A stretch of 64,000 nucleotides of DNA from a virus. Numbering within the stretch: the first letter of the stretch is position 1; each line of letters begins with the position of its first letter. Below, piece by piece: positions 12,696 to 55,162 of this stretch. The position numbers were made by a program, and so were the translations under genes. The notes under the pieces were generated by a model. It was not told where the DNA came from and searched no databases. It saw nothing but the letters and a program-made list of their open reading frames with translations. The stretch is from IMG/VR virus record IMGVR_UViG_3300028859_000006, positions 62,001 through 126,000 of that record, one strand, 5' to 3'.

Positions 12696-12733
12696 AAAAC
12701 TCAGTAAAAATTAAATTTTACTGAGTTTTTTAA
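12696..12733. terminator. bidirectional terminator
   Basis: AAAAAACTCAGTAAAA-TTAAA-TTTTACTGAGTTTTTT: perfect stem with A run before and T run after, able to end transcripts on both strands. The orphan - strand fragment at 12711-12833 also ends in it. Confidence 0.85.
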
Positions 12734-12833
12734 GTTTTTCTTCTCTTAACATTATAATTGATTTATCATAATATTTTTGATATTTATCACGATGTTCAAA
12801 ATTATTAGTTATCCAAATATAACTATTTATAAA
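12711..12833 (-). pseudogene. orphan 3' gene fragment with KLxKL tail
   Basis: The - strand reads FINSYIWITNNFEHRDKYQK then YYDKSIIMLREEKLKKLSKI and a stop, with an in-frame TAA directly upstream and no start. It resembles the C-terminal remnant at 63107-63334 and other tail-family proteins. The remaining intergenic sequence to 12910 is AT-rich; I see only a TATATA stretch before the next gene. Confidence 0.65.
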
Positions 12834-12910
12834 TTACCTACCAAATAAATATAGATATTATTATTTGAAATTAATATTTTTTATATATAAGAAAAATAAT
12901 ATTTTATATC

Positions 12911-14215
12911 GTGCCAACAATAAAAATAGCAGCAAATAGAGTAACAATAAATACATCTGGAGTATCATCATCAAATGTATCATCATCATTGAATGGTAAT
13001 ATGAATTTAATAAAATCCCAAGTGACTCAAAAAACTAATGATTATATTAATGTTAAAAATGCTGTTAATATATTAGAAATTTATTCTAATTGGAATGGTT
13101 ATATAAAACTTTATACCGAAGTTCAAAGTAATTTTATAGTTGGTGACACTGCATATATTACTTATACTTCAACAAATACAGAGCCAAATATATTTAATCT
13201 TGAAAATCCTTCTATACCTGATGAGGGAAGTAATAGATTTTATTTAGGATATAAAATATTATACGTTAATCAATTTAAAAATGAAATAGTAATAAATAGA
13301 CATTATAATGATATACCGATTGGTTATTCATTAGCAAATCAACAAATCAGTAAAATATCATGTAGAGGTGGATATTTATATAACTCTGTATCTGATGGAG
13401 TTGTATTTTATAACTGTAGTATTCTTAATGCTGGATTTGCTACAATTAGTGGTATTATTAGTATAGGAAATATACCGATATCAGGAGCATTAATTACAGT
13501 ATCAGGAACAAAAATAATACATACAACAGATTCAAATGGATATTATATCATAAATGCGGCATCAGGAGATAATTTAATAAAATGTTATTCTCCTGGATTT
13601 ATAATAAATACTATTAATGTGCATATCAATTTAGATGAGAAAGTAACTCAAAATATTTCAATGATTGAAGGTAATAATAGTATAACTATATCATCTATTA
13701 ATATACAACCTAATTTTGGTACAAATATTATTTCTACATGTTCAACTAATATTATTAACTTTACATCAACAAATTTAGGATATTCACAAAATATTAATTA
13801 TAAATGGTTTATAACAAGAACTGGAATTAATATACCAGTTGGATCTAATAATAGTAATTTTTCATATAATAATTTTAATAACAATGATATGATTTATTGT
13901 ACAATTATAGATAATGATTTTATTGATGTTTTAACTGGATATACCAGTAATGTTATTTATATTAATATATTACAACCAATATTTGAAATTACCGCAGATA
14001 AATATACTATAAATAGTAGTGATAGTGTTACATTTTACGCAAATATTCAATGTTATTCAAATCCAACATTTCAATGGTATATACATAATACACCTGTCGG
14101 TACAAATAGTAATATATTTATTTCTGTTCCAGGTGAAATAGCTAATAATGATATAATAAGTTGTTATATGGGATCTATTTCTAGTACTAATAATATAAGA
14201 ATGATTGTTATATAA
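12911..14215 (+). CDS. Ig-like/carboxypeptidase-regulatory-like adhesin
   Basis: 434 residues, GTG start (no upstream ATG in frame). The N-terminal third is a beta-rich region of unknown type. Residues about 175-240 (SGIISIGNIPISGALITVSG ... TTDSNGYYIINA) match the carboxypeptidase-regulatory-like beta sandwich. Two Ig-like segments follow, each with a conserved Trp (NYKWFI and PTFQWYI). This is a typical modular decoration or receptor-binding protein exposed on virions. Its orientation is opposite to the adhesin block downstream. Confidence 0.75.
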   Translation: MPTIKIAANRVTINTSGVSSSNVSSSLNGNMNLIKSQVTQKTNDYINVKNAVNILEIYSNWNGYIKLYTEVQSNFIVGDTAYITYTSTNTEPNIFNLENPSIPDEGSNRFYLGYKILYVNQFKNEIVINRHYNDIPIGYSLANQQISKISCRGGYLYNSVSDGVVFYNCSILNAGFATISGIISIGNIPISGALITVSGTKIIHTTDSNGYYIINAASGDNLIKCYSPGFIINTINVHINLDEKVTQNISMIEGNNSITISSINIQPNFGTNIISTCSTNIINFTSTNLGYSQNINYKWFITRTGINIPVGSNNSNFSYNNFNNNDMIYCTIIDNDFIDVLTGYTSNVIYINILQPIFEITADKYTINSSDSVTFYANIQCYSNPTFQWYIHNTPVGTNSNIFISVPGEIANNDIISCYMGSISSTNNIRMIVI

Positions 14216-41552: not shown

Positions 41553-43505
41553 TTAAAATTCAAATTCTAATAAATCAATAAATTTTTTACCATTTTTAGT
41601 TTTAATATCATTTATTGTTATTTTTGATGATATAAGTTGACAGTAATATGTTAATGCATTTTTTACATCAATTAAATTTGCACAAGGAGTTTTAATATCA
41701 GAAATAACAACATAATCTTCAATATATGATGCAAGAAAATTTGTTTCTACTTTTGATTTTTTAGATAATACTAAATTTTTATCTTTATCTAAATATATTG
41801 TTATGATATTATTATTTAATTCTATATAACCTTCATTCGGTGTATTATGTACAATTTTTAATGAAAAATCATTTGTATGTGATGAATCATTTTGATCACT
41901 ATATGATGAAGCTTGTTCTTTTATACCATTTTTAAAATTAAATTTATTTTTCTTAATTACATGTTTACATGGAGGAACATTATATTTATTTTTTAAATAT
42001 GAAAGATGAAGTTTGATGTGTTTTATTTCTGTATAAATTATAAAATTATAATTATGATATCCACATGATCTACCTGCAAAACTTTGAACAATAAAACTTG
42101 TTCTATATGTAGAATCATTAACTGTAGTTCTATCAAATAACATTACAATATTTTCTTTCTCTAATTGATATGATTGCTTCATTTTCTCCTTAATAAATAT
42201 TATGGTAGGAGCATCTGGTGCATTTTTTAATACATCATTAATAACTTCTTTATCTTTCTCATAATATGTCAAAGTTTTAAATCCATCAGGTATTAGATTA
42301 TTTGTATTTGTATTTTTATTTATTCTAACAATATAATATCCTATTTTATTATTAAAGCTTTCTGCTTCATTTATAAAATGTTTTTCACCTTCTGTTGTTG
42401 ATAAATCAAATGATTCTCTTAAAAAATTATTTTTTAAAAAATATTCTAAGCCTTTGTAATTAGGTCCGTGAGATAATTCAATAGTGTTCTTTCTTTTATA
42501 TAAAATATTACCAACATGTTCTTCATACGGAGTTGCTGATATAGAAAATAAGAAAATATTTTTTTTTGATAAATCAGTTGAACCATTTAAATTTATACCA
42601 TTTTTTTGAAGATAACTATTCATAGCACTATCAACATTTGATGCTAAATGAGCTTCATCAATAAATATAATACAATTATTTAAATCACCTACTTTATTTT
42701 TTCTTGACCAACGAATTAAATCTGGATTATGCATAATACCATTCCTCTTTAATATTTTTTGATCATCTTGCCGACACTCTCCATGAGATATGTCAGTTTT
42801 TAATTGTTCTTTATTTGAATTATCACACATTGGAGTTATTAATACACTACTTCTAAATTTCAAATTTAGATATTCTCTTAATTCTTGATAAGTTTCTAAT
42901 AAATATATTATATTACGTACAACACCAGTTTTACCTGCTTGAGTTTCTGCAGTTAACATATTATACCTACTATGTTTTGAATTAAGTTTTGATGATAACA
43001 TATTATATATGCAACTTAATGATGCAAAAATCTGATCATCAAATACGTGTGATTTATCATTAATATTATCAGTTCTATTTAATTTTTCTAATTTGATGCC
43101 AGTTAGACGATATATTTCAGAAATCAATTTATTAATACGAAATTTTATACTATGAGCTAAATTAGTATTTGCTGGAATAGTTGTGGTGGTGGTAGTTGTT
43201 TTACTATTACTATTAGCAGATTTTATTAATTGGTGTTTTTTATTATATACAATATCTTTTAGATTTTCAATATCATATTTAGTACATTTATCATTTTTAA
43301 TTCTAATATCTATTAATTTATTAATTGCAATAAGTGCTTTTTTTCGATTAGTATTCCATTTCTTACTATATAAAGCATCAACTAATTGATCATTGCTATA
43401 ACGACTAAAATCAAATTTTCTTACGTATGGTTTATTATTTTTAGTAAGTTGACCATTAATTAAATTTCTTTTAGCTTTAACACTAATAATGTTATTATTT
43501 ACCAT
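41553..43505 (-). CDS. SF2 DEAH-type helicase/ATPase next to cas3
   Basis: 650 residues. Walker A-like AETQAGKTGVVRN (about residue 186), Walker B/DEAH IFIDEAHLA (about 283) and motif III FSISATPYEE (about 319). The first 110 residues are basic and end in a poly-Thr linker (run of seven Thr), like the linkers of the adhesins. It has its own TTTG-N20-TATATTTG promoter, so it is a separate unit from cas3, although both lie on the same strand. Function in CRISPR is not implied by any motif; it could act in replication, restriction or DNA repair. Confidence 0.78.
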   Translation of the reverse strand: MVNNNIISVKAKRNLINGQLTKNNKPYVRKFDFSRYSNDQLVDALYSKKWNTNRKKALIAINKLIDIRIKNDKCTKYDIENLKDIVYNKKHQLIKSANSNSKTTTTTTTIPANTNLAHSIKFRINKLISEIYRLTGIKLEKLNRTDNINDKSHVFDDQIFASLSCIYNMLSSKLNSKHSRYNMLTAETQAGKTGVVRNIIYLLETYQELREYLNLKFRSSVLITPMCDNSNKEQLKTDISHGECRQDDQKILKRNGIMHNPDLIRWSRKNKVGDLNNCIIFIDEAHLASNVDSAMNSYLQKNGINLNGSTDLSKKNIFLFSISATPYEEHVGNILYKRKNTIELSHGPNYKGLEYFLKNNFLRESFDLSTTEGEKHFINEAESFNNKIGYYIVRINKNTNTNNLIPDGFKTLTYYEKDKEVINDVLKNAPDAPTIIFIKEKMKQSYQLEKENIVMLFDRTTVNDSTYRTSFIVQSFAGRSCGYHNYNFIIYTEIKHIKLHLSYLKNKYNVPPCKHVIKKNKFNFKNGIKEQASSYSDQNDSSHTNDFSLKIVHNTPNEGYIELNNNIITIYLDKDKNLVLSKKSKVETNFLASYIEDYVVISDIKTPCANLIDVKNALTYYCQLISSKITINDIKTKNGKKFIDLLEFEF

Positions 43506-43527: not shown

Positions 43528-43559
43528 CAAATATAAGGATAATATTTGAAACAAACAAA
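43528..43559 (-). promoter_or_regulatory. host-type promoter of the helicase gene
   Basis: On the - strand: TTTG, 20 nt, TATATTTG (43528-43535), close before the helicase ATG. Confidence 0.78.
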
Positions 43560-43597: not shown

Positions 43598-45895
43598 TTA
43601 TATTAAATTATCGTAAATATCATTTTTTACTAATCCTAATTTTTCACAATAAACTTTATCAAATGCAATATATGGGGTTTCTTTTTTCCTGGCATAATCT
43701 TTAAGTATAGGTAAAGTATATTGATTATTTTTAAATAACGAATATTTATTATAAAAAAATCTATCATCCTTAATTTTTATAATATTCTTTATTATTCTCT
43801 TAATTTTACTATCTAAACCTGTTATTGGTTCAGATTTTTTAATATCTCGATTAAAATCTACACTAAATGAGTCCGTCATTTGTCTTTTTTTTGCATATTT
43901 ATATATACAATATATATCTCCTCCACTTCTTAATTTAGTATTATTATTTTTAATTGTATTGTTTTTAGATTTCTCCATCATCTTATACGGTTCAATTTTA
44001 CATAAATTTAATAAACTTGTTTTTAGTTTAGATGTGATAAACTTTTTTAAATTTTCATTATTTTCATTATTAAACATATTATAATATTCATATAATTCAT
44101 TTATTGAATATAAATTTCCGTTAATAATATGTTTTTTAATAAATGAAATCCATAATTTATTTAATTCTAAATCATATTGATTTGATATACTAGTGTTTTC
44201 TGAGTTTCTAAATTCACTTTTATTTTCATTAAAAAATAAATTTATTTTTGGAGTTTTATTTTTTTTATAATAAAAATGTCCCCACCTATCACATCGACCT
44301 ATTCTTTGTAAAGTAGTTTCTGGAGACATCACACTATCTGTTAAATTTAAAAATGATATATCCATAGATGCTTGTAAAATAGGTGCTGATATAATACTAT
44401 CTTTATTCAAAATATTTTTATTTTCTTTGCCATATAAATGAATAATTTTATTCATTATTTTTTCTTTATCAGAATCTATATATCTACTATGTATTAAAAT
44501 ATCGCCTTTTTTATAACAATATAATCTTTGAGAATTTGAAATAGAATTCATAATAACAACTGAATCTTTTTCATTAGTTATTGTATCAATATCATCAATA
44601 TAATTAATCAAATATTTACCATTATGTGCAGATGTATAATGAGAATTTTTATTTGGTAAAATTTTAGTTTTTTTATCTATATTTGTTCCATCCCATAAAT
44701 ATTCCATTATAGTTTGTGTAGCACTTAATAATAATGTGTGACTATTTGTTAACATATGTCTAGATTTCATGATATTAATAAAACATGCAAATAGTGCATC
44801 ATCTTTAATTAATTCATGATATTCATCAAAAATCACATCACAATAATTAATAACAAATAATCTATTTCTAATAGAATTATTCACATTAGGAGATAAATAA
44901 TTATCTATATTAGTTATTATAATATCAGATGTAAATTCTTTAGTGTTTTCATTATTTGTTTTCTGTCTATTACCTGTTAAATATAACTCAACTGATAATT
45001 CAACTGATATATTTTTTAATTCTTGTAAAACAGAATTATATACATTTTCAGCAATAATATTTCTAGGGCATACCCATATTAATTTTTTATTAGATTTTAA
45101 TGACCATAATAACCCCAATAATGTTTTACCAAAACCGGCTGGGGCTTTCATTATTGTAGTTCGATTATTTAATGATTGATTTGCGTAATCAACTTGAGAA
45201 TCAAAACGAATAGAATCATAATTAATAGGTTTGCTATATACTTTAGTATCTTTATATGATAAATTGTTTATTAATTCTTCACAATAATCATCATCATACA
45301 ATATTTTTTCTTGATCTGATGCTGATACAAGTCTATCAGCAGTTATAACACAAGATCTTACTAATGAATTTTTAGAATTTGTTAAACTATTTGGTTCATT
45401 TAAATAATATAATGGAGTATTGATAGATTTTTCAAAATTTATATCTTCAAATAATATATTTTCATTCATTAAAAAATTATACATTGATAAAATATTTTTT
45501 TTATCATCATCACACATATCACTTAAAATTAATGATATATTATCATTACTTATATAATTTATTTTTGGTTTAGAATGATGCCAATATATTGAATCTAAAG
45601 AATATCTATATTCATCATTATTTAAAATACATGACACAAATGCCCAACTTATTTCATGATGAAATATTGGAGAATTAATAAAAGAAATTGTTTTACTTTT
45701 TGATTTTATATAATTTTGAAAATCTAAATTACATTTACCTAAATCATGCAATAAACAAGCTATTGAAATTTGTTTTTCAAGGTCTTCATTTAATGATAAC
45801 TTTTTTGATAACATCATTCCTATTTTTTTAACTGCTTTTGAATGAGTTATTAATGATATTCCACTACTATTTGATACAATTTCTTCTAATTTCAT
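43598..45895 (-). CDS. cas3: CRISPR-associated nuclease/helicase Cas3
   Basis: 765 residues, normal for Cas3. HD nuclease domain: His18, HD at residues 50-51 (CLLHDLGKC), HHE and a following YWHHSKP. Helicase domain: Walker A APAGFGKT, DEYHEL (motif II), LLSATQ (motif III) and QRIGRCDRWG (motif VI). Cas3 is recruited by a type I Cascade bound to its target and degrades the DNA. It lies directly downstream of the CRISPR array on the same strand and is separated from the other cas genes by the array. No Cas2 fusion is visible. Confidence 0.93.
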   Translation of the reverse strand: MKLEEIVSNSSGISLITHSKAVKKIGMMLSKKLSLNEDLEKQISIACLLHDLGKCNLDFQNYIKSKSKTISFINSPIFHHEISWAFVSCILNNDEYRYSLDSIYWHHSKPKINYISNDNISLILSDMCDDDKKNILSMYNFLMNENILFEDINFEKSINTPLYYLNEPNSLTNSKNSLVRSCVITADRLVSASDQEKILYDDDYCEELINNLSYKDTKVYSKPINYDSIRFDSQVDYANQSLNNRTTIMKAPAGFGKTLLGLLWSLKSNKKLIWVCPRNIIAENVYNSVLQELKNISVELSVELYLTGNRQKTNNENTKEFTSDIIITNIDNYLSPNVNNSIRNRLFVINYCDVIFDEYHELIKDDALFACFINIMKSRHMLTNSHTLLLSATQTIMEYLWDGTNIDKKTKILPNKNSHYTSAHNGKYLINYIDDIDTITNEKDSVVIMNSISNSQRLYCYKKGDILIHSRYIDSDKEKIMNKIIHLYGKENKNILNKDSIISAPILQASMDISFLNLTDSVMSPETTLQRIGRCDRWGHFYYKKNKTPKINLFFNENKSEFRNSENTSISNQYDLELNKLWISFIKKHIINGNLYSINELYEYYNMFNNENNENLKKFITSKLKTSLLNLCKIEPYKMMEKSKNNTIKNNNTKLRSGGDIYCIYKYAKKRQMTDSFSVDFNRDIKKSEPITGLDSKIKRIIKNIIKIKDDRFFYNKYSLFKNNQYTLPILKDYARKKETPYIAFDKVYCEKLGLVKNDIYDNLI

Positions 45896-45950
45896 ATTTT
45901 TTATTTTAATTGTGAATAAAAATAATTTTTTAATTATTTATAATATAAAT

Positions 45951-45990
45951 CATAAATTTAATTACTGATTTATATAAATATAATAAACAC
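45951..45990 (-). repeat. degenerate CRISPR repeat relic
   Basis: TTACTGATTTATATAAATATAAT resembles the inner part of the CRISPR repeat (TTACGGATTTATATAAATAATAT) with an insertion and substitutions, one spacer length before the first intact repeat. It marks the old, trailer end of the array. Confidence 0.6.
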
Positions 45991-46014
45991 ATATTTAAAT
46001 AGTGTCACTATTTT

Positions 46015-48422
46015 GTTGAGATTCCCTTACGGATTTATATAAATAATATCGAATTCGACTTCTGTGCGACCTTGTTCGTCGTTGAGACTCCCTTACGGAT
46101 TTATATAAATAATATCTTCACTTAATGTAATAAATTCTAAATCATGTTGAGACTCCCTTACGGATTTATATAAATAATATCTTATCATTTTTTTCAAAAA
46201 TAGAAAGAGAAGTTGAGATTCCCTTACGGATTTATATAAATAATATCTTATCATTCAGAATTATTTTTTCTTCTTTAGTTGAGACTCCCTTACGGATTTA
46301 TATAAATAATATCAACTATAGAAACAATAGAAAGAGATTTATTGTTGAGACTCCCTTACAGATTTATATAAATAATATCAATATTTGTCATTTGTTTTTC
46401 TTCTATATATGTTGAGACTCCATTACGGATTTATATAAATAATATCTAAACTGTCATCTAAATGATCATTTGATTTGTTGAGACTCCCTTACGGATTTAT
46501 ATAAATAATATCATTATCTGAATATGCTGCAAATCATAAACTGTTAAGACTCCTTTACGGATTTATATAAATAATATCTGCATACAGAATTCACCGTTGT
46601 AATTCATTGTTGAGACTCCATTACGGATTTATATAAATAATATCTTTAACAAGTGTCTTCCCTCCTTTTCTATAGTTGAGATTCCCTTACGGATTTATAT
46701 AAATAATATCTAAATACTCTGAATATTCAACTGGTAAGAAGTTGAGATTCCCTTACGGATTTATATAAATAATATCAAAATCATCTGTGAAAATTGGAGT
46801 TACACCGTTGAGACTCCCTTACGGATTTATATAAATAATATCAAATTATTTTATAACTGAATATCAATCAATGTTGAGACTCCCTTACGGATTTATATAA
46901 ATAATATCTGTTGTACCTAAAACTAAAACTGTTTCTCTGTTGAGACTCCCTTACGGATTTATATAAATAATATCTAATTCTAATTCTAAATCTGTATAAT
47001 CACCGTTGAGACTCCCTTACGGATTTATATAAATAATATCTTATTTGAAAATCTTTACAAGAAAATCAGGGTTGAGACTCCCTTACGGATTTATATAAAT
47101 AATATCTTACCAATTAAGAAAAAGAATTGATACCTTGTTAAGACTCCCTTACGGATTTATATAAATAATATCTTATTAATAGATGTGCTGGCACCACCTT
47201 CGTTGAGACTCCCTTACGGATTTATATAAATAATATCTTTTGTATTTGAAATAATATCACTTCCTTTGTTGAGACTCCCTTACGGATTTATATAAATAAT
47301 ATCTTATATTACTATATTTATTAAATATGATAAGTTGAGACTCCCTTACGGATTTATATAAATAATATCTGAATCACTTTTTGTTTTACGTAGTAATTCG
47401 TTGAGACTCCCTTACGGATTTATATAAATAATATCATCAAGAACTTCGGTTGCCTTTAATTCATTGTTGAGACTCCCTTACGGATTTATATAAATAATAT
47501 CCTATAACCTCCCTATTTTTTTCATCAACTGTTGAGACTCCCTTACGGATTTATATAAATAATATCATATAATCACTTCTTTTCCTGCTCTGCTTTGTTG
47601 AGACTCCCTTACGGATTTATATAAATAATATCATTGCACTAAAAATGTCATTAATAGGGTTCGTTGAGACTCCCTTACGGATTTATATAAATAATATCGC
47701 ACTTTTCCCATTTTTTCTGGCTACACTTGTTGAGACTCCCTTACGGATTTATATAAATAATATCATTTCTTCTTTGAATGATTTGTAGAAATATGTTGAG
47801 ACTCCCTTACGGATTTATATAAATAATATCTAGCGTATTTGATTCTAATAAGCAATATGTGTTGAGACTCCCTTACGGATTTATATAAATAATATCACCG
47901 ATTAACTCTTTTCTTAATTGACTATAGTTGAGACTCCCTTACGGATTTATATAAATAATATCTAGCGTATTTAATGTAAATAAGCAATATGTGTTGAGAC
48001 TCCCTTACGGATTTATATAAATAATATCAAAAGCGAATTCAACATTGACTGACGCTCGTTGAGACTCCCTTACGGATTTATATAAATAATATCGACAAAT
48101 TAAATACATATATATAACATATGTTGAGACTCCCTTACGGATTTATATAAATAATATCTGATATAATTGAAAGTCAATCATTTTATTTGTTGAGACTCCC
48201 TTACGGATTTATATAAATAATATCCTGTTATGTTAGAATAAGTAATTGCACTATGTTGAGACTCCCTTACGGATTTATATAAATAATATCAAATCTATTT
48301 AAAGAGATTGAACAGCTAGAGTTGAGACTCCCTTACGGATTTATATAAATAATATCTAGCAGAACAGGATAGACATCAATTCATTGGTTGAGACTCCCTT
48401 ACGGATTTATATAAATAATATC
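46015..48422 (-). CRISPR. CRISPR array, 37 repeats and 36 spacers
   Basis: 36-bp repeat, starting GTTGAGACTC and ending AAATAATATC on the + strand, at a regular spacing of 65-67 bp; spacers are 29-31 bp. Variant repeats cluster at the left end (46015, 46344, 46411, 46543, 46609, 46675 and 46741 carry single changes); the right half is nearly uniform. On the - strand the repeat ends TCC-GTAAG-GGA then GTCTCAAC: a small hairpin followed by an 8-nt sequence, as expected for a Cas6-generated 5' handle. Polarity and handle both point to leftward transcription from the cas6 side. Spacers at 47831 and 47963 are near-duplicates. Confidence 0.97.
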
Positions 48423-48523
48423 AGGATATTTATAATTAATTGATATTGAGTTATTTATAGTATATATTAATAAATAAAAATGAGTTATTAATATACGTAT
48501 ATCATTATATTTATTCATTTTTA
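48423..48523 (-). promoter_or_regulatory. probable CRISPR leader
   Basis: About 100 bp of A/T-rich sequence between cas6 and the uniform end of the array. It contains the palindrome TATACGTATA and several TATA-type stretches. No clean TTTG-N20-TAnnTTTG is seen on the - strand, so the array may be co-transcribed with the cas operon. Confidence 0.5.
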
Positions 48524-49228
48524 TCATACTAATTTATATTTATCTTTATTTTCTGTTTTATAAATTGTACCAAATCCAGAACCAGTTGATTGTCCTATAC
48601 CTAAATTATAAATTTTTTCTGCCACATCAGATGAACAAAATATACTAATGTGACATTGATTAGCTTCATTTTTGACATTTTTAACCATTATTTTCTTTAC
48701 TTTATGTGAAGGATGATTTATTATTTTAACATCAAAATCTTTTAAATTAATACCGTTATAAATTTTACTCAATTTTTTTATAATATGGTTTTTTACAATA
48801 TATACGAAATCAGAATCATTTAAAGTTGAATAAGTATATTTCTTTTTATTAATATGCTTTCTAATAATAAATGGAGATAATGTTGCGAAATGATTCCATC
48901 CATTTATAAATTTTTCAAAGATAAAATTAATTTTATTAAATTTCATTCCCCAATTTAAATCTTGATTAGACATCACTCCACTTATTAAATCATTCAAAAA
49001 TTCTTCATTTTTTGAAGTTACTACAATAATTCCTCCATTCTTAAATGATAAATGTAACTTATCTTCAGTTAGGTTTCCACCATATAAAGATGATATAGAG
49101 TAATCATTTTTAGAATCATGATATTTATTATTAACTCCAAGACATTTGTGTATATAATAATTAATATATGATTGATTCTTAATCGGTACCAATGTTTTAT
49201 TTTCTGTAAATTCAATTTTTATTCTCAT
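48524..49228 (-). CDS. cas6: CRISPR RNA endonuclease Cas6
   Basis: 234 residues. The C-terminus carries the RAMP glycine-rich loop GIGQSTGSGFGTI, diagnostic for Cas6. The N-terminal half has ferredoxin-like strands. Cas6 cuts the repeat transcript to make crRNAs; the catalytic His cannot be assigned by eye. It overlaps the cas5-like gene by 17 nt and adjoins the array. Confidence 0.88.
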   Translation of the reverse strand: MRIKIEFTENKTLVPIKNQSYINYYIHKCLGVNNKYHDSKNDYSISSLYGGNLTEDKLHLSFKNGGIIVVTSKNEEFLNDLISGVMSNQDLNWGMKFNKINFIFEKFINGWNHFATLSPFIIRKHINKKKYTYSTLNDSDFVYIVKNHIIKKLSKIYNGINLKDFDVKIINHPSHKVKKIMVKNVKNEANQCHISIFCSSDVAEKIYNLGIGQSTGSGFGTIYKTENKDKYKLV

Positions 49229-50111
49229 ATTCTTCTAATTTATTAATATTAATATAACTATCTAAATCATTTTCAATCATTTCATCTTCATTTATCAAAT
49301 CTTCTATCCAAACAAATCCTCCATCTAATAACGTTGCACAACCTTTTGAATTTTTAATTTTGTCAACATATTCTGATGTTAAAGGAATTATTATAGAACC
49401 ACTAATTTTTGTAATATTATCAATTCCTCTAATATTTGTTAATGTAGTTTTTGGATTTTGACCAATTGTTATTGCTGATTGATTTACAATACCAATAAGA
49501 AGATTTGCAATTGGAGTTTTATTATTTTTAACTAATTTTTTACAAAAAATTGTAAAATCAGAATTATCATTATATTGTTTAATGAAATTTGCAAATTTTA
49601 TTTTGCTATTATTTTTTATTTCATTATTAATATCTATAACTAATTTAGAACTACTATAATATGTAATAATCTCTTTTATTATATACATTGCAGGTTTTGA
49701 TTTAACATCATAACCTAATATATTATTAAATAAATTAATCATTTCTATAAATAGATCAGTAGTTAAATAACATTCTAGATTTTCCCAATAAATAAAACTT
49801 CTTTTTTTATCTCTATAGCTATCATAAGCAAATTTATTTGTTTGTATAAACTCATTCATATAACACATTTTACCACTAGATTTATTTAAAAATCTTGTTG
49901 TATCTATTTTTATATAAGCTAAATTAGCTATATTAAATATATCTGATATAGGTTTAATTAATGTATCTCTATATGTTGGACTTGGACGTTCACCCATTAA
50001 AACATGCAGCATGTTACTTATTTGATGAACACTTATACTAGGTTTTTGATTATTAGTTGCTTTTTCAAAAAATCCAGCATCTTTAAATGACAATTTTAAA
50101 AAATATTCCAT
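49212..50111 (-). CDS. cas5: Cas5-like Cascade subunit
   Basis: 299 residues. The N-terminus (LKLSFKDAGFFEKATNNQKP, SISVHQISNMLHVLMGERPS) fits the Cas5 start, in which a strand is followed by a Pro-containing segment and a short helix. The middle 130 residues are helical, and the C-terminus returns to beta strands (ISGSIIIPLTSEYVDKI). The helical insert could take over the PAM-reading role of Cas8, as in the reduced I-F variant, but this is inference. Position between cas6 and cas7 supports the call. Confidence 0.6.
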   Translation of the reverse strand: MEYFLKLSFKDAGFFEKATNNQKPSISVHQISNMLHVLMGERPSPTYRDTLIKPISDIFNIANLAYIKIDTTRFLNKSSGKMCYMNEFIQTNKFAYDSYRDKKRSFIYWENLECYLTTDLFIEMINLFNNILGYDVKSKPAMYIIKEIITYYSSSKLVIDINNEIKNNSKIKFANFIKQYNDNSDFTIFCKKLVKNNKTPIANLLIGIVNQSAITIGQNPKTTLTNIRGIDNITKISGSIIIPLTSEYVDKIKNSKGCATLLDGGFVWIEDLINEDEMIENDLDSYININKLEEYENKN

Positions 50112-50121
50112 ATTATTAGAA

Positions 50122-51195
50122 TTATTTAGCTTCTTTTTGAGATTTTAATTTAGCTTCTTTTTTTTCTTTTTTATCATCTTTAGCTTTCAATTTAGCATCT
50201 ATTCTTTTTTTAATTATAATAGATCTCTTATCTGACAATTCTATATCTAAAGTTTTTGCATTTTCAAAATCATATTCAGTATAAAAATTTTCATTTTCAA
50301 AATTTAAATTATCTATAACATCTTTTGTTAATTCAATCCATCCATCAGAATTATTTTTTTTATCATTAAATACGTCATATACTAATTTAATTTTAAGTTT
50401 AGACGTAACAACACTAGATCCAGATTTATAAATATTCATTTTTAGCATTTTATATAATAGATTTTTTGTTAGTTCAACAACATCTGTATTGGATAATAAA
50501 AAACCATATTCTGGTAATTCAACAACACTATTTGTAATCCTATAATATTTTAATTCCGAATTAAATGATGGTAATCTTTTTTTCAATAATTCTGAATATA
50601 AAGGAAATAAATCTGGATTGAATGCTAATCGATCTAAATTTTTAGAACAACTAATAAATTGCATTTGCATTAAATCAATATTACCATCAGTCTCATATGT
50701 TATATCTCCTACAGTTTCTTTGTTAAATAATGAAGTATCACTTATTTTTTCACCACTAACTGTCATAAGTTCTATTTTTGATTTACAATTATTTGTTTGT
50801 TCAGCGTCAATTATACATAAAACACTTTTTCTTCTAATTGTTTTATCAATCTCATCTTCATTCAATGCAAATAAATGACCTCTATTTATAATTGCAGGAG
50901 AAGCCAACATTGACACAAGTAAATAATTATTATGCAATATATTTGGAGATTGAAATGGAATATCATCAATAAAAATATTATGTCTTAAACAATTACTAGA
51001 AATTTTTATTTTATAATCATATTCACCATTACTTTTCTGATATATATTTTTTTTTGCAAATATTAAATTATTATCAGTTTCATACTTTCCACCACTAATT
51101 TCATTCCATATCCATTTTTGTCCATTACTATCACAGTTAACAACACCATTACCTTCTAATTCCATTTTAAATAAAATGTTCTTTACTTTTTTCAT
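50122..51195 (-). CDS. cas7: Cas7-like Cascade backbone subunit
   Basis: 357 residues. ILFKMELEGNGVVNCDSNGQ at the start, KISSNCLRHNIF, SMLASPAIINRGHLFALN and CIIDAEQTNNCKSKIELMTV are consistent with a Cas7/RAMP backbone protein. A highly charged Lys/Glu tail ends it. First gene of the cas operon. Cas7 polymerises along the crRNA. I cannot assign the subtype; it does not show the usual I-B, I-C or I-E Cas7 starts. Confidence 0.65.
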   Translation of the reverse strand: MKKVKNILFKMELEGNGVVNCDSNGQKWIWNEISGGKYETDNNLIFAKKNIYQKSNGEYDYKIKISSNCLRHNIFIDDIPFQSPNILHNNYLLVSMLASPAIINRGHLFALNEDEIDKTIRRKSVLCIIDAEQTNNCKSKIELMTVSGEKISDTSLFNKETVGDITYETDGNIDLMQMQFISCSKNLDRLAFNPDLFPLYSELLKKRLPSFNSELKYYRITNSVVELPEYGFLLSNTDVVELTKNLLYKMLKMNIYKSGSSVVTSKLKIKLVYDVFNDKKNNSDGWIELTKDVIDNLNFENENFYTEYDFENAKTLDIELSDKRSIIIKKRIDAKLKAKDDKKEKKEAKLKSQKEAK

Positions 51196-51260: not shown

Positions 51261-51524
51261 TTAATTAAAAATATTATTCAATTTTTTCAATTTAATTTTT
51301 CTAATCTCATTTTTTCTATAAAAATAAGTATATAAATATTCTTCATCACGTTTAAAAGATGAATAAGCATTTTTATCATCAGATATCAAATACTGATAAT
51401 CATCATCATAATTAATAATAAAATGAACAATATAATATCTATCTTTATGATATATTGAATATGATGTTGTTAAATCTTTTTTACATAATAACTTATCTCC
51501 TACATTAAGATTCTGATTCTTCAT
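51261..51524 (-). CDS. tandem family protein, copy 1 (most promoter-distal)
   Basis: 87 residues. MKNQNLNVGDKLLCKKDLTT start, RYYIVHFI strand, YLYTYFYRKNEIRKIKLKKL end. The family layout is: conserved start with NxGDKLLCK, a variable middle of about 45 residues with YYIVxDI, then YxYFYTKxExRKIKLxKL. It fits a small SH3-like barrel plus a basic helix. This last copy ends ahead of the cas operon and carries an NNIFN end. Confidence 0.82.
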   Translation of the reverse strand: MKNQNLNVGDKLLCKKDLTTSYSIYHKDRYYIVHFIINYDDDYQYLISDDKNAYSSFKRDEEYLYTYFYRKNEIRKIKLKKLNNIFN

Positions 51525-51771
51525 AAATTTTTTCTAATTTAATTTTTCTTTCTTCTTGTTTAGTATAAAAATGTTCAGACATCTCTTTTATGCTAAATGA
51601 AAATGGTAATATTCTATCATTTTCATCATTAAAATAATAACAATATTCATAAGGACCGTATACTACCATAACAATATAATAATTATCAACATATAAATAT
51701 TTATTTGCTCCAACTAGAAGATTTTTTTTACATAATAATTTATCTTCATCATTAATATCCTGTTTCTTCAT
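51505..51771 (-). CDS. tandem family protein, copy 2
   Basis: 88 residues. MKKQDINDEDKLLCKKNLLV (GD replaced by ED), YYIVMVVYGPYEYCYYFND, tail HFYTKQEERKIKLEKIYEES. Overlaps copy 1 by 20 nt. Confidence 0.82.
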   Translation of the reverse strand: MKKQDINDEDKLLCKKNLLVGANKYLYVDNYYIVMVVYGPYEYCYYFNDENDRILPFSFSIKEMSEHFYTKQEERKIKLEKIYEESES

Positions 51772-52024
51772 AAAGTTTTTCTAATTTTATTTTTCTCTCC
51801 TCTTGTTTAGTATAAAAATGTTCATAAAAAAATCTAACGCTATATCTAAAAGAATAATATTTTTTTTTATCAAATTCTATATAATAACAATAATCAGTAT
51901 TATTGTCAAATAATTTAATATCATAAACAATATAATATTTATTTTTATTAAAACTTGCATATAATTCATTTAAATTTTTTTTACACAATAACTTATCACC
52001 TACATTAAGATTCTGATTCTTCAT
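51752..52024 (-). CDS. tandem family protein, copy 3
   Basis: 90 residues. MKNQNLNVGDKLLCKKNLNE, KYYIVYDIKLF, tail HFYTKQEERKIKLEKLYEET. 20-nt overlap with copy 2. Confidence 0.82.
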   Translation of the reverse strand: MKNQNLNVGDKLLCKKNLNELYASFNKNKYYIVYDIKLFDNNTDYCYYIEFDKKKYYSFRYSVRFFYEHFYTKQEERKIKLEKLYEETGY

Positions 52025-52271
52025 AAAGTTTTTCTAATTTAATTTTTCTCTCTTCTTGTTTAGTATAAAAATGATTTAGTAATTCATTTTTATTTAAAAA
52101 ATATGGATATATTCCATTAGATTCATTAAATATACAGCAGGCAAAACCTTTAAATGAATCATTCAGAATTTTATGATAAATATAATATTTACATTCTATA
52201 AAATGTGTACTATAATTAGCTATTAAATCTTTTTTACATAATATTTTATCACCTTCATTAAAATTATTCAT
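52005..52271 (-). CDS. tandem family protein, copy 4
   Basis: 88 residues. Short start MNNFNEGDKILCKKDLIANY, CKYYIYHKIL, tail HFYTKQEERKIKLEKLYEES. The MNNFNxGDKILCKKDL start is shared with copy 6, so the two form a subgroup. Confidence 0.82.
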   Translation of the reverse strand: MNNFNEGDKILCKKDLIANYSTHFIECKYYIYHKILNDSFKGFACCIFNESNGIYPYFLNKNELLNHFYTKQEERKIKLEKLYEESES

Positions 52272-52515
52272 AAAGTTTTTCTAATTTGATTTTTCTTTCT
52301 TCTTGTTTAGTATAAAAATACTGATGTAAATATGATTCACTAAAAAATGGTAATATTGTATTGAATTCTGATCTTAAATCATAAAAATATTCACTATAAT
52401 CAGTTGAAAAATTTTTAATATCATCTACATAATAATATTTATCTTTAATAAATATTTTATCAATCTCCTCTTTACATAATAATCTATCTCCTACATTAAT
52501 ATTCTGTTTCTTCAT
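52264..52515 (-). CDS. tandem family protein, copy 5
   Basis: 83 residues, the shortest. MKKQNINVGDRLLCKEEIDK, KYYYVDDIKNF, tail YFYTKQEERKIKLEKLYE. Overlaps copy 4 by only 8 nt because its C-terminal EESES extension is missing. Confidence 0.82.
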   Translation of the reverse strand: MKKQNINVGDRLLCKEEIDKIFIKDKYYYVDDIKNFSTDYSEYFYDLRSEFNTILPFFSESYLHQYFYTKQEERKIKLEKLYE

Positions 52516-52762
52516 AAAGTTTTTCTAATTTTAATTTTCTAATCTCATTTTTCATAAAAAAATGACCAACTAAATCATGTTCAGTTAAATAATATGAAAA
52601 TATATTATTAGATTCACTTATATAACAGCAGTAAAAATCATTAAAAATACCACTAAACATATTATCATGAAAAATATAATAATCACCTTCTATAATATGG
52701 TTACCATAATAAGTTAAATCCTTTTTACATAATATTTTATCACCATCATTAAAATTATTCAT
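52496..52762 (-). CDS. tandem family protein, copy 6
   Basis: 88 residues. MNNFNDGDKILCKKDLTYYG, YYIFHDNMF, tail HFFMKNEIRKLKLEKLYEET. 20-nt overlap with copy 5. Confidence 0.82.
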   Translation of the reverse strand: MNNFNDGDKILCKKDLTYYGNHIIEGDYYIFHDNMFSGIFNDFYCCYISESNNIFSYYLTEHDLVGHFFMKNEIRKLKLEKLYEETEY

Positions 52763-53030
52763 AATTTTCTATTTTATCTAATTTTCTTTTTCTTTCTTCT
52801 TGTTTAGTATAAAAATATTCATATAAATCTTCTTCACCACAAAATAATATTAAATTATCATCATCATCAAATAAATAATAATAATAAAAATCCACACCGC
52901 TTATAGTATTAGAAATAATATAAATTGATATCATAGCATAATATTTGTCTATTTTGAAATTTTTATTTATATTAATTATATTATATTTACATAATAAATT
53001 ATCTCCTACTTTAAGATTTTGATTCTTCAT
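52755..53030 (-). CDS. tandem family protein, copy 7
   Basis: 91 residues. MKNQNLKVGDNLLCKYNIIN, KYYAMISIYII, tail YFYTKQEERKRKLDKIENYE. Overlaps copy 6 by 8 nt. Confidence 0.82.
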   Translation of the reverse strand: MKNQNLKVGDNLLCKYNIININKNFKIDKYYAMISIYIISNTISGVDFYYYYLFDDDDNLILFCGEEDLYEYFYTKQEERKRKLDKIENYE

Positions 53031-53286
53031 AAAGTTTTTCTAATTTGATTTTTCTTTCTTCTTGTTTAGTATAAAAATATTCACAAAATTCTCCGTAATA
53101 TCTAAAATTAACAGGTTGATATTGTTCACATATAAGCATATAAATATAATCAGTATAATTATTATTAGTTGGAGTAATTTCACAAACATAATAATATTCA
53201 AATTCAATAAGATATGTACTTTCTGAATTAAAAAGATTTTTTTTGCATAATAATTTATCTCCTACATTAATATTCTGCTTCTTCAT
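53011..53286 (-). CDS. tandem family protein, copy 8
   Basis: 91 residues. MKKQNINVGDKLLCKKNLFN, YYYVCEITPT, tail YFYTKQEERKIKLEKLYEES. 20-nt overlap with copy 7. Confidence 0.82.
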   Translation of the reverse strand: MKKQNINVGDKLLCKKNLFNSESTYLIEFEYYYVCEITPTNNNYTDYIYMLICEQYQPVNFRYYGEFCEYFYTKQEERKIKLEKLYEESKS

Positions 53287-53536
53287 AAAGTTTTTCTAAT
53301 TTAATTTTTCTTTCTTCTTGTTTAGTATAAAAATATTTACAAAATTCTTTTTCATCACAACATACCAATGATTCGAAATCGTCTAAATAATAGAAATAAT
53401 AATCTTTACGAGCTACATTAATAATATCAATATATTTAATATAATAATATTTACCTTTTATAATATATGTAGAATTTGATAAAAAACTAATCTTACATAA
53501 TAACTTATCTCCAATATTAATATTCTGCTTCTTCAT
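53267..53536 (-). CDS. tandem family protein, copy 9
   Basis: 89 residues. MKKQNINIGDKLLCKISFLS, KYYYIKYIDII, tail YFYTKQEERKIKLEKLYEEA. 20-nt overlap with copy 8. Confidence 0.82.
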   Translation of the reverse strand: MKKQNINIGDKLLCKISFLSNSTYIIKGKYYYIKYIDIINVARKDYYFYYLDDFESLVCCDEKEFCKYFYTKQEERKIKLEKLYEEAEY

Positions 53537-53801
53537 TTTTTAATTTTTCTAATTTAATTTTTCGTACTTCATTTTTAGTATAAAAATAATCATCAAATTC
53601 TTCTATATAATAGAAATCTTTATTGGTATCATCTATTATATTATATTTATAATAAAGTACATCAATGTCAGCACTCAAAAGTACATCAAAGTCAGCACTC
53701 AAAATTATATATTCTACACCTTTCGTTAATGTCAGATATGATTTATTAACATCAATTTTACACAATAATTTATCTCCTATATTAAAATTTTGATTCTTCA
53801 T
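53517..53801 (-). CDS. tandem family protein, copy 10
   Basis: 94 residues from MKNQNFNIGDKLLCKIDVNK; an upstream extension of the frame reads through the neighbour and is rejected. Contains an in-frame 24-bp tandem duplication (ADFDVLLSADIDVL), so the variable middle is longer. Tail YFYTKNEVRKIKLEKLKNEE. Confidence 0.82.
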   Translation of the reverse strand: MKNQNFNIGDKLLCKIDVNKSYLTLTKGVEYIILSADFDVLLSADIDVLYYKYNIIDDTNKDFYYIEEFDDYFYTKNEVRKIKLEKLKNEEAEY

Positions 53802-54069
53802 GAAGTTTTTGTAATTTAATTTTTCTAGTTTCGTTTTTTGTGTAAAAATAAGTATAAATATCTTCATATGAACAAACAATATTCATTTTTTCATTTCCTA
53901 TGGTCATATAATAATATGCATTATCAATATTAAAAAATTTATTATCAATATTAAAAAATTTAATATCATAAACAGTATAACATGAATTTAGTATATAATA
54001 TTCAAAATTTGGATGAAATATACGTTTACATATTAATTCATCTCCTATATTAAGATTCTGTTCCTTCAT
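53782..54069 (-). CDS. tandem family protein, copy 11
   Basis: 95 residues. MKEQNLNIGDELICKRIFHP, tail YFYTKNETRKIKLQKLHEES. The middle has a 21-bp duplication giving KFFNIDNKFFNIDN. Confidence 0.82.
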   Translation of the reverse strand: MKEQNLNIGDELICKRIFHPNFEYYILNSCYTVYDIKFFNIDNKFFNIDNAYYYMTIGNEKMNIVCSYEDIYTYFYTKNETRKIKLQKLHEESKF

Positions 54070-54319
54070 TACCCAACTTTTTTAATTTAATATTCCTAAC
54101 TTCCTTCTCAGTGTAAAAAAATTCATAAATATCTTTTTCATACTGAACTTCTACCTTTACATTATTATCATCAATTATATAAATAAAAGTATAATATTCA
54201 GTCTCAAATAAACTATCACTTATAATATATTCGTTCCCTTTATGAATAGATATCTTATGATGAATATAATCTTTTTTGCATAATAATTTATCTCCTACTT
54301 TAAAATTATGATCCTTCAT
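54050..54319 (-). CDS. tandem family protein, copy 12
   Basis: 89 residues. MKDHNFKVGDKLLCKKDYIH, EYIISDSLF, tail FFYTEKEVRNIKLKKLGNEG. 20-nt overlap with copy 11. Confidence 0.82.
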   Translation of the reverse strand: MKDHNFKVGDKLLCKKDYIHHKISIHKGNEYIISDSLFETEYYTFIYIIDDNNVKVEVQYEKDIYEFFYTEKEVRNIKLKKLGNEGTES

Positions 54320-54599
54320 TTATTTCATTTAATTTCATGCTTCTAATTTCATTTTTAGTATAAAAATAAGTATATAAATATCTTTCCATCCAAAATGAAT
54401 ATCGTTCATTATTATCATCAATTATATAATAAAAATATTCATTATAATCCACAAAAATATCATTAATTAATCTAATTTCATCAACAACATAATATTTACC
54501 TTTTTTAAAAAATAATAATGAAGTATTATTAGATACCAATGATTTTAAATCATTTTTGCATAATAATTTATCTCCAATATTAAGATTCTGTTTATCCAT
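54306..54599 (-). CDS. tandem family protein, copy 13
   Basis: 97 residues. MDKQNLNIGDKLLCKNDLKS, KYYVVDEIRLI, tail YFYTKNEIRSMKLNEINEGS, a more diverged end. Overlaps copy 12 by 14 nt. Confidence 0.8.
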   Translation of the reverse strand: MDKQNLNIGDKLLCKNDLKSLVSNNTSLLFFKKGKYYVVDEIRLINDIFVDYNEYFYYIIDDNNERYSFWMERYLYTYFYTKNEIRSMKLNEINEGS

Positions 54600-54915
54600 T
54601 TATTTTCTGCAATTTCTTATTTCTTAATTCTTTTTTTTCATAAAAATAATCATGAAAAAAACTTTCAGACCAAAATGAACATGATTTATTCATTTCTCCA
54701 TTTATATAATAAATATAATCATCTTGTCCAAATATATGATCACATGTATTCTTATAAGCATATTTATCATCTATTATTTTTATATCAACAATAGAATAAT
54801 ATTTATCTTTTATAAAATGAGAAAATATTATTAATTTATCATCACTAATTAAATTTTGAAATAAATCTTTTTTACATAATAACTTATCTCCTAAATTAAT
54901 ATTCTTTTTCGTCAT
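54592..54915 (-). CDS. tandem family protein, copy 14
   Basis: 107 residues, the longest. MTKKNINLGDKLLCKKDLFQ, KYYSIVDIKII, tail YFYEKKELRNKKLQKING. Confidence 0.8.
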   Translation of the reverse strand: MTKKNINLGDKLLCKKDLFQNLISDDKLIIFSHFIKDKYYSIVDIKIIDDKYAYKNTCDHIFGQDDYIYYINGEMNKSCSFWSESFFHDYFYEKKELRNKKLQKING

Positions 54916-55162
54916 TTTTTAATTTGTTTAATTTTATTTTTCTTTCTTCTTGTTTAGTATAAAAAACATCATAAAAATCAACTTTACGTAGATATAATAA
55001 ATTTTTGCTATTTTTTTCTTTTAATGAATAAAAATTACTACTATAAAATATGTTAGTATTAACTATTTCATATTCTCTATCTTTATAAAAAACTTCAGTA
55101 TAATTATAATAACTATTTTTGCATAATAATTTATCTCCAATATTAATATTCTGTTTATCCAT
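54896..55162 (-). CDS. tandem family protein, copy 15 (promoter-proximal)
   Basis: 88 residues. MDKQNINIGDKLLCKNSYYN, REYEIVNTNIF, tail VFYTKQEERKIKLNKLKNDE. First intact copy; a truncated sixteenth copy precedes it. No clear promoter is visible directly upstream. Confidence 0.82.
   Translation of the reverse strand: MDKQNINIGDKLLCKNSYYNYTEVFYKDREYEIVNTNIFYSSNFYSLKEKNSKNLLYLRKVDFYDVFYTKQEERKIKLNKLKNDEKEY

What the first reader, a model, noticed from the sequence alone, without database searches (positions are those of the whole stretch)
43598..51195. Streamlined phage-encoded type I CRISPR-Cas without cas1/cas2/cas4 and without a recognisable cas8
Seen: cas3 (HD and DEYH helicase), a 37-repeat array, cas6 (GSGFG loop), a cas5-like and a cas7-like gene, all on the - strand, with no adaptation genes and no large subunit between the helicase gene (41553) and the tandem gene array (51261). 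Known: type I interference normally needs Cas8 for PAM reading, and only reduced variants such as I-Fv lack it. Inference: the helical middle of the cas5-like protein may do this job, and spacers must be acquired with host machinery or by recombination. The Cas7-like start does not match the common subtypes, so this could be a new subtype.
Basis: partly seen in the sequence, partly recalled or inferred. Interest (0 to 1): 0.92.

Follow-up and report, generated by a model that had tools for sequence, protein, structure and literature searches.

The report
Phage-carried stripped-down type I-F2-like CRISPR
Large phages, probably of Bacteroidota, carry a four-protein CRISPR interference system related to the minimal bacterial type I-F2, without the spacer-capturing parts and with a different RNA-processing enzyme, perhaps used against rival DNA in the infected cell.

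Summary
On the - strand of window 43598-51195 lie cas7, a cas5-like gene, cas6, an array of 37 36-nt repeats with 36 different spacers, and cas3. Cas1, Cas2, Cas4 and Csy1 (Cas8f) models found nothing in this record or in 15 related virus records. Cas7 is a Cas7fv relative (profile E 2e-19; structure Z 22.6 against 12.8 for the next family), Cas3 is nearest to Cas3fv, and the cas5-like protein has a Cas5 fold whose best solved match is Cas5fv (Z 8.9, weak). So this is a relative of type I-F2 (I-Fv), the known type I system without Cas8. It differs from bacterial I-F2: no cas1, no Cas2 domain on Cas3, a Cas6 unlike Cas6f, and 36-nt repeats. Sixteen distinct loci were found; the 14 not cut by a contig end have a cas3-cas7-cas5-cas6 set plus an array, and seven lie on contigs of 256-597 kb. 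One divergent locus has a Cas6e-like enzyme, so Cas6 is exchangeable. HD, Walker A, DExH and SAT residues of Cas3 are conserved in 15 of 15. Targets, PAM and spacer source remain unknown. New variant of a known kind.

The parts
50122..51195 (-). cas7 (Cas7fv-related backbone, 357 aa)
   Evidence: NF040577 E 2.1e-19; PDB 5o6u/9g44 E about 4e-16; hhalign to plasmid Cas7fv Prob 99.7; AF2 model Z 22.6 to 5o7h_E
49212..50111 (-). cas5-like gene (299 aa): Cas5 fold with an inserted all-helical stretch, residues about 109-217; putative PAM reader
   Evidence: AF2 pLDDT 78.4, pTM 0.53; VIA-align best hit 5o6u_F Z 8.9, 117 aligned, rmsd 2.8; no family hit beyond chance; hhalign to Cas5fv not significant
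48524..49228 (-). cas6 (234 aa, general Cas6/Cas6b-like crRNA endonuclease)
   Evidence: TIGR01877 6.1e-22 over its cut-off; PADLOC Cas6b 6.5e-36; not alignable to Cas6f
48423..48523 (-). putative leader between cas6 and the first repeat
   Evidence: lies next to the undamaged end of the array; function inferred
46015..48422 (-). CRISPR array: 37 repeats of 36 nt, 36 unique spacers of 29-31 nt
   Evidence: the 9 variant repeats all fall in the last 18 of 37
43598..45895 (-). cas3 (765 aa: HD nuclease and DExH helicase, no N-terminal Cas2 domain)
   Evidence: Pfam, NCBIfam and PADLOC Cas3fv 6.5e-66; hhalign to plasmid I-F2 Cas2-3 E 5e-55, starting at its residue 108; motifs conserved in 15 of 15

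Best explanation
It is a virus-borne derivative of the minimal type I-F2 (I-Fv) interference machine. Cas6 cuts the array transcript at the 36-nt repeats. Cas5-like binds the 5' tag, several Cas7 copies coat the guide, the helical insertion of Cas5-like replaces Cas8 in sensing the PAM duplex, and Cas3 (HD nuclease and helicase) is recruited to shred the target DNA. The adaptation half of bacterial I-F2 (cas1 and the Cas2 domain fused to Cas3) is missing, so new spacers, if any, must come from host Cas1-Cas2 acting on the phage array or from recombination. The likely use is destruction of competing DNA (other phages, plasmids or satellites) in the infected cell. Shown: gene content, homology of Cas3 and Cas7, conserved catalytic residues, array form. 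Inferred: complex assembly, PAM reading by Cas5, DNA cleavage, adaptation in trans, targets.
For: Cas7: Cas7fv profile and structure well above any other family. Cas3: PADLOC Cas3fv best (6.5e-66, next Cas3b 7.6e-38), solved I-F2 complex 9g44 E 4e-52 against 8e-4 for the next chain, hhalign E 5e-55. Gene order of annotated plasmid I-F2, cas1f-cas3-cas7fv-cas5fv-cas6f, is kept without cas1 in 10 of 14 complete loci; cas7 and cas5 are neighbours in 14 of 14. The plasmid Cas3 has Pfam Cas3_I-F_Cas2 at 1-79, E 8e-37; none of 15 phage Cas3 proteins matches it at E 0.001, and the open frame leaves at most 14 codons before the start chosen for them. HD, Walker A (GxGKT), DExH and SAT residues are invariant in 15 of 15; of four motif-VI positions checked one is Ser for Gly in one protein. 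Cas6 window against L036: dN 0.065, dS 0.536. Published I-Fv mechanism: no large subunit, PAM read by a Cas5fv helical domain (PMC6546366, passages). Variant repeats sit at the cas6-distal end, as expected from past one-ended growth.
Against: The Cas5-like protein has no significant sequence match to Cas5fv (hhalign Prob 0.5, E 0.11; PADLOC 0 of 14 members) and Foldseek gave no hit below E 0.098; VIA-align covered only 117 residues, so equivalence of the helical part is untested. Cas7 is far below the NCBIfam Cas7fv cut-off (70 of 200 bits). One of 15 Cas3 proteins did not reach E 0.001 with the Cas3_HD model, though its HD residues are present. No protospacer was found. The 21-kb stretch with the array is identical in all seven sibling records, so no recent acquisition is seen.
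Confidence: 0.8

Rival explanations
1. A separate type I subtype that lost Cas8 on its own, with Cas7 only distantly linked to Cas7fv.
For: Cas5-like not alignable to Cas5fv; Cas7 below the curated Cas7fv cut-off; different Cas6 and repeats; only virus contigs and one contig in a Bacteroidetes bin found.
Against: Cas3 and Cas7 both point to I-F2 above other subtypes; operon order is that of I-F2 in most loci; the best fold match of Cas5-like is Cas5fv; L052 Cas7 scores higher to Cas7fv, E 8e-39.
Confidence: 0.13
2. A binding-only or regulatory system that silences host or rival genes without cutting.
For: A huge-phage CRISPR effector thought to act in repression is reported (PMC7162821, passages).
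Against: Cas3 nuclease and helicase residues are intact in 15 of 15, which a silencing-only system would not need.
Confidence: 0.1
3. A decaying relic without function in this phage.
For: No matching protospacer found; identical array in all seven sibling records; 9 of 37 repeats mutated.
Against: Full-length frames of all four genes in the window and in 11 of the other 12 uncut loci scanned, the twelfth, L052, having a different cas6; one search counted one stop codon in 4 of 16 Cas7 matches, but the open frames given there (340-364 codons) place it at the match ends. Cas6 is under purifying selection; Cas3 motifs are conserved over deep divergence; the first 19 repeats are identical.
Confidence: 0.05

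Closest known systems
Type I-F2 (I-Fv) of Shewanella putrefaciens CN-32, Vibrio islands and Acinetobacter plasmids
   Same: Cas7fv-type backbone, Cas3fv-type nuclease-helicase, a Cas5 in the same slot, no Cas8, no small subunit, same order cas3-cas7-cas5-cas6 in 10 of 14 loci (Vibrio order cas1-cas3-cas7fv-cas5fv-cas6f in PMC6360697, passages)
   Different: No cas1; no Cas2 domain on Cas3; Cas6 not Cas6f; 36-nt repeats with 30-nt spacers against 8 + 20 nt repeat tags in CN-32 (PMC4605320, passages); on large phages, most with Bacteroidota-type promoters, instead of beta- and gammaproteobacteria (same paper)
Vibrio phage ICP1 type I-F system
   Same: Type I-F-related system on a phage
   Different: ICP1 has an adaptation module (PMC11656645, passages); recalled: it has Cas8f; here neither was found
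Type I-C variant of huge phages (Al-Shayeb 2020)
   Same: Huge phage, class 1 system, no Cas1/Cas2
   Different: That one lacks Cas6 and has another helicase in place of Cas3 (PMC7162821, passages); here both Cas6 and Cas3 are present
I-F variant between I-F1 and I-F2 (2025 classification)
   Same: Rare I-F derivative
   Different: Only one sentence and a figure legend seen (PMC12669027); gene content not seen, so identity with the present system cannot be excluded
Prophage III-B/I-F hybrid of Vibrio
   Same: A Cas6 from one type serving another effector
   Different: There a type III-B effector with Cas6f (PMC6360697, passages); here an I-F2-like effector with a Cas6b- or Cas6e-like enzyme

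Membership tests
Type I-F2 (I-Fv) | Cas7fv backbone homology | tested here: met
   NF040577 E 2.1e-19, PDB E 3.6e-16, hhalign Prob 99.7, Z 22.6 against 12.8 for the next family
Type I-F2 (I-Fv) | Cas7fv curated cut-off (NF040577, 200 bits) | tested here: not met
   70 bits for the window, 133.8 for L052, 69.6 for L051
Type I-F2 (I-Fv) | No large or small subunit gene in the operon | tested here: met
   No gene beyond the four cas genes and the array between 43598 and 51195; Csy1 0 of 16 records
Type I-F2 (I-Fv) | Cas5fv with inserted helical domain | tested here: inconclusive
   Best VIA-align hit Cas5fv Z 8.9, 117 residues; helical insertion predicted; sequence profiles do not match
Type I-F2 (I-Fv) | cas1 and Cas2-3 fusion | tested here: not met
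   Cas1 0 of 16 virus records; Cas2 domain not found in 15 of 15 Cas3
Type I-F2 (I-Fv) | Cas6f and 28-nt repeats | tested here: not met
   General Cas6/Cas6b, no match to Cas6f, 36-nt repeats
Type I-F2 (I-Fv) | GG PAM | not testable with these tools
   No protospacer found
Type I CRISPR-Cas in general | Cas3 with HD and helicase, RAMP Cas5/Cas7, Cas6, array | tested here: met
   the Cas5 part rests on a fold match of moderate Z
Type I-B | Cas8b and Cas7b with Cas6b | tested here: not met
   Only Cas6 is Cas6b-like and Cas3b is second to Cas3fv; Cas7 is Cas7fv-like; none of the five proteins scanned is a Cas8

The most novel reading that the evidence does not exclude
A virus-only branch of type I (sister to or derived from I-F2) has been kept over deep divergence by huge phages, most of them probably of Bacteroidota, as an interference-only weapon: four proteins, 1,655 aa, in which Cas6 is an exchangeable part (Cas6b-like in most, Cas6e-like in one) and the array is fed by host Cas1-Cas2 in trans. 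It would merit its own variant name.
Probability: 0.55. Interest if true: 0.72.

Novelty: new variant of a known kind. Interest (0 to 1): 0.62.

Why it matters
It extends the Cas8-less I-F2 design from proteobacteria to large phages, most with Bacteroidota-type promoters, shows adaptation missing down to a single protein domain, and gives many natural versions of a very small Cas3-based system (1,655 aa for four proteins). Conserved, polarised arrays without Cas1-Cas2 make the question of who feeds phage arrays directly testable.

Tried and rejected
Protospacers: the pattern shared by spacers 7 and 9 occurs in IMG/VR only in the seven sibling arrays themselves. blastn of the array against 50,697 phage records gave only hits with E of 0.7 or more in the rows shown (40 of 72 records listed). 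158 spacers from 10 arrays against DNA held (G000, G001, G002, G003 and the cas flanks of eleven other loci, stretches near repeats masked) gave scores no better than shuffled or reversed spacers; the one 25/25 match (L008 spacer 8 in L069) lies in that contig's own array. The other spacers of the window were not searched in IMG/VR. No target or PAM can be stated. Spacers showed no clear coding-phase signal.

Host array: a GGGAATCACAAC repeat pair with 66-nt-like spacing occurs in 1 of 395 Bacteroidota genomes, and that one is the L053 contig itself. This exact pattern would miss repeats like the window's own. The L053 bin has one Cas1 on another contig; it shows that a donor is possible, no more.

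Bacterial relatives: two scans of the 84,980-species collection, with Cas5-like (0 loci) and Cas7 (1 locus, L053), are pattern-limited. The L053 contig looks phage-like by its gene content (my reading), not tested further. In the phage collection of named records neither Cas7 nor Cas5-like had a match, and Cas3 had one weak one.

Foldseek alone did not identify the Cas5-like protein. hhalign of it with two Cas5fv sequences failed. VIA-align lists only chains that Foldseek ranked.

Repeat stem: of seven repeats folded, only L052 (z -2.6) and L036 (z -1.9) fold clearly better than shuffles.

Literature: eight searches and passages of eleven papers showed no phage-borne I-F2 without Cas1/Cas2. 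The most relevant paper, Al-Shayeb 2022 in Cell, is not held, and no supplements were seen, so I do not claim that the system is undescribed.
Full report
What is there. The window is positions 62001-126000 of a 190,824-bp virus record. On the - strand, in transcription order, lie cas7 (50122-51195), a 299-codon gene (49212-50111), cas6 (48524-49228), an array (46015-48422) and cas3 (43598-45895). The array has 37 repeats of 36 nt and 36 different spacers of 29-31 nt, mostly 30. The first 19 repeats counted from cas6 are identical; all 9 variant repeats lie in the last 18 (chance 4e-4 if placed at random). Eight other arrays put their mismatches mainly in the cas-distal half. Nine of the 14 arrays were tabulated; L008 was left out because two of its ten repeat matches lie on the other side of the genes, and L041, L042, L049 and L051 because their repeats were not extracted. 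This polarity points to past growth at the cas6 end.

What the proteins are. Cas3 has HD, DEAD and Cas3 C-terminal domains; its best PADLOC profile is Cas3fv, E 6.5e-66, then Cas3b, 7.6e-38, and its best solved relative is chain A of 9g44 (E 4e-52, next 8e-4), which the structure library titles the minimal type I-F2 DNA-interference complex. Cas7 matches only the Cas7fv model in NCBIfam (2.1e-19). Its AlphaFold model (pLDDT 84) matches I-Fv/I-F2 Cas7 at Z 22.6 to 21.3, then other Cas7 at 12.8 and below. Cas6 is a general Cas6 (TIGR01877 over cut-off; PADLOC Cas6b 6.5e-36). The 299-aa protein has no family hit, nor have the 14 aligned members of its family beyond chance. Its model (pLDDT 78.4, pTM 0.53) has strands at both ends and helices from 109 to 217. 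Foldseek finds only weak Cas5-type hits (best E 0.098). VIA-align puts Cas5fv (5o6u_F) first, Z 8.9 over 117 residues, followed by Cas5 of other subtypes at 7.3 and lower. So it is a Cas5 by fold and place; that it is Cas5fv in the strict sense is not shown, and a profile comparison with two Cas5fv sequences failed.

Relatives. Scans of IMG/VR with Cas7 and Cas5-like and two genome scans (none, one) gave 16 distinct loci. Loci were merged where coordinates and scores, or a 400-bp probe, agreed, not by full comparison; the seven sibling records of this phage are identical over 21 kb. Of the 16, L045 and L048 are cut by contig ends; the other 14 all have cas3, cas7, cas5-like, a cas6 and an array (L052 by ORFs with the Cas6e hit; L053 by reading with the array). 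Order cas3-cas7-cas5-cas6 occurs in 10 of 14; cas7-cas5-cas6-array-cas3 in the window phage, L036 and L053; cas6-cas7-cas5-array-cas3 in L051. Seven lie on contigs of 256 to 597 kb. None of 16 virus records (own record, its longer copy and 14 others) has a Cas1, Cas2, Cas4 or Csy1 match; many may be fragments. In 395 Bacteroidota genomes only the bin that holds L053 has the Cas7 or the repeat.

Comparison with bacterial I-F2. Two Acinetobacter plasmids carry cas1f, cas3, cas7fv, cas5fv, cas6f in this order, as Vibrio islands do (PMC6360697, passages). Their Cas3 starts with the I-F Cas2 domain (shown for L103: Pfam PF21384, residues 1-79, E 8e-37). The phage Cas3 profile aligns from residue 108 of that protein onward (E 5e-55), none of 15 phage Cas3 proteins matches the Cas2 domain (L053 not included), and their frames leave at most 14 codons before the start chosen. 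So both halves of adaptation, cas1 and the Cas2 domain, are missing while the interference half is kept. Cas6 differs: the phage Cas6 profile does not align to Cas6f, and divergent L052 has a Cas6e-type enzyme (TIGR01907, 47.3 bits over a cut-off of 45.2) with a 32-nt strongly hairpinned repeat (-10.5 kcal/mol). The 36-nt repeats of 12 loci can form a small stem before the last six nucleotides, 90% of cells paired, with one compensated pair in three sequences; the controls are mixed (1 of 500 shuffles reach the covariation score, 304 of 500 the number of compensated pairs), and most single repeats do not fold better than shuffles. The stem is therefore only suggested.

Function. The HD, Walker A (GxGKT), DExH and SAT residues are invariant in 15 of 15 Cas3; one of four motif-VI positions has one Gly-to-Ser. 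The Cas3_HD model reached E 0.001 in 14 of 15. Cas6 of the window phage and L036 are 85% identical in protein, 87.7% in DNA, dN 0.065 and dS 0.536, while their Cas3, Cas7 and Cas5-like are 44, 52 and 49% identical, which suggests exchange of cas6 between phages and purifying selection on it. In S. putrefaciens the I-Fv complex works without large or small subunits; Cas5fv binds the 5' tag and its extra six-helix domain serves PAM reading, while Cas7fv loops guide the other strand (PMC6546366, passages; PMC4605320, abstract and passages). The same division of labour is the simplest reading here. Assembly, PAM and cleavage are inferred.

Spacer supply and targets. Without Cas1-Cas2 the array could be fed by the host; a plasmid type IV-A system using host I-E adaptation is a precedent (PMC11656645, passage). 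Against recent acquisition, the array is identical in all seven siblings. No target was found. Near-duplicate spacers in the window (7 and 9: same ends, four differences within six central bases) and in L052 (17 and 20 share 20 nt) suggest targeting of variants of one sequence.

Host. Upstream of genes, the Bacteroidota-type motif TTG-N-TAnnTTTG (motif recalled) occurs in 12 of 163 regions of the longer record of this phage, against 5 on the other strand, 0 reversed and 0.6 in shuffles; G002 gives 18 of 205 against 2, 1 and 0.9; six further loci together 11 of 75 against 1, 0 and 0.5; L051 and L052 show no signal (1 of 17 against 2, 0 and 0.2). A stricter form over the whole window was not above chance (4 seen, 4.7 expected), nor in L031 (3 against 1.7). 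L053 sits in a Bacteroidetes bin. A Bacteroidota host is therefore likely for the window phage, not shown, and open for L051 and L052.

Verdict. The finding is real. It is a conserved, phage-borne, interference-only relative of type I-F2 with exchanged Cas6; a new variant of a known kind. Since several defining features of I-F2 were tested and not met, I do not file it as I-F2, but it most likely works like it.

Noticed in passing
window 51261-55162: Fifteen tandem paralogues of about 88 aa directly upstream of cas7; the related phage L036 has 12 copies in the same place (L036:6258-9596), and single copies lie elsewhere in the window (2407, 59526, 59770). Unknown function; an accessory or anti-defence role next to cas is possible.
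   Followed up: partly
window 48524-49228 and L036:11957-12667: cas6 is 85% identical between two phages whose other cas proteins are 44-52% identical, although their repeats differ at nine positions.
   Followed up: partly
L052:12038-12556 and 12723-14142: Divergent locus with a Cas6e-type enzyme and a 32-nt strongly hairpinned repeat beside Cas7fv-like genes.
   Followed up: partly
L051:12119-12900: Several repeats carry a tandem duplication of their last 15 nt, giving 51-nt units.
   Followed up: no
L008:12650-12810: Two degenerate repeat copies after cas6 while the main array lies before cas3, as if the array had moved or been copied.
   Followed up: no
window 41553-43505: 650-aa gene with only a weak AAA ATPase hit (E 0.016, below cut-off), downstream of cas3, with a Bacteroidota-type promoter-like site at 43528-43559.
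   Followed up: no
L050 array: One spacer is present twice, letter for letter (spacers 8 and 12).
   Followed up: no
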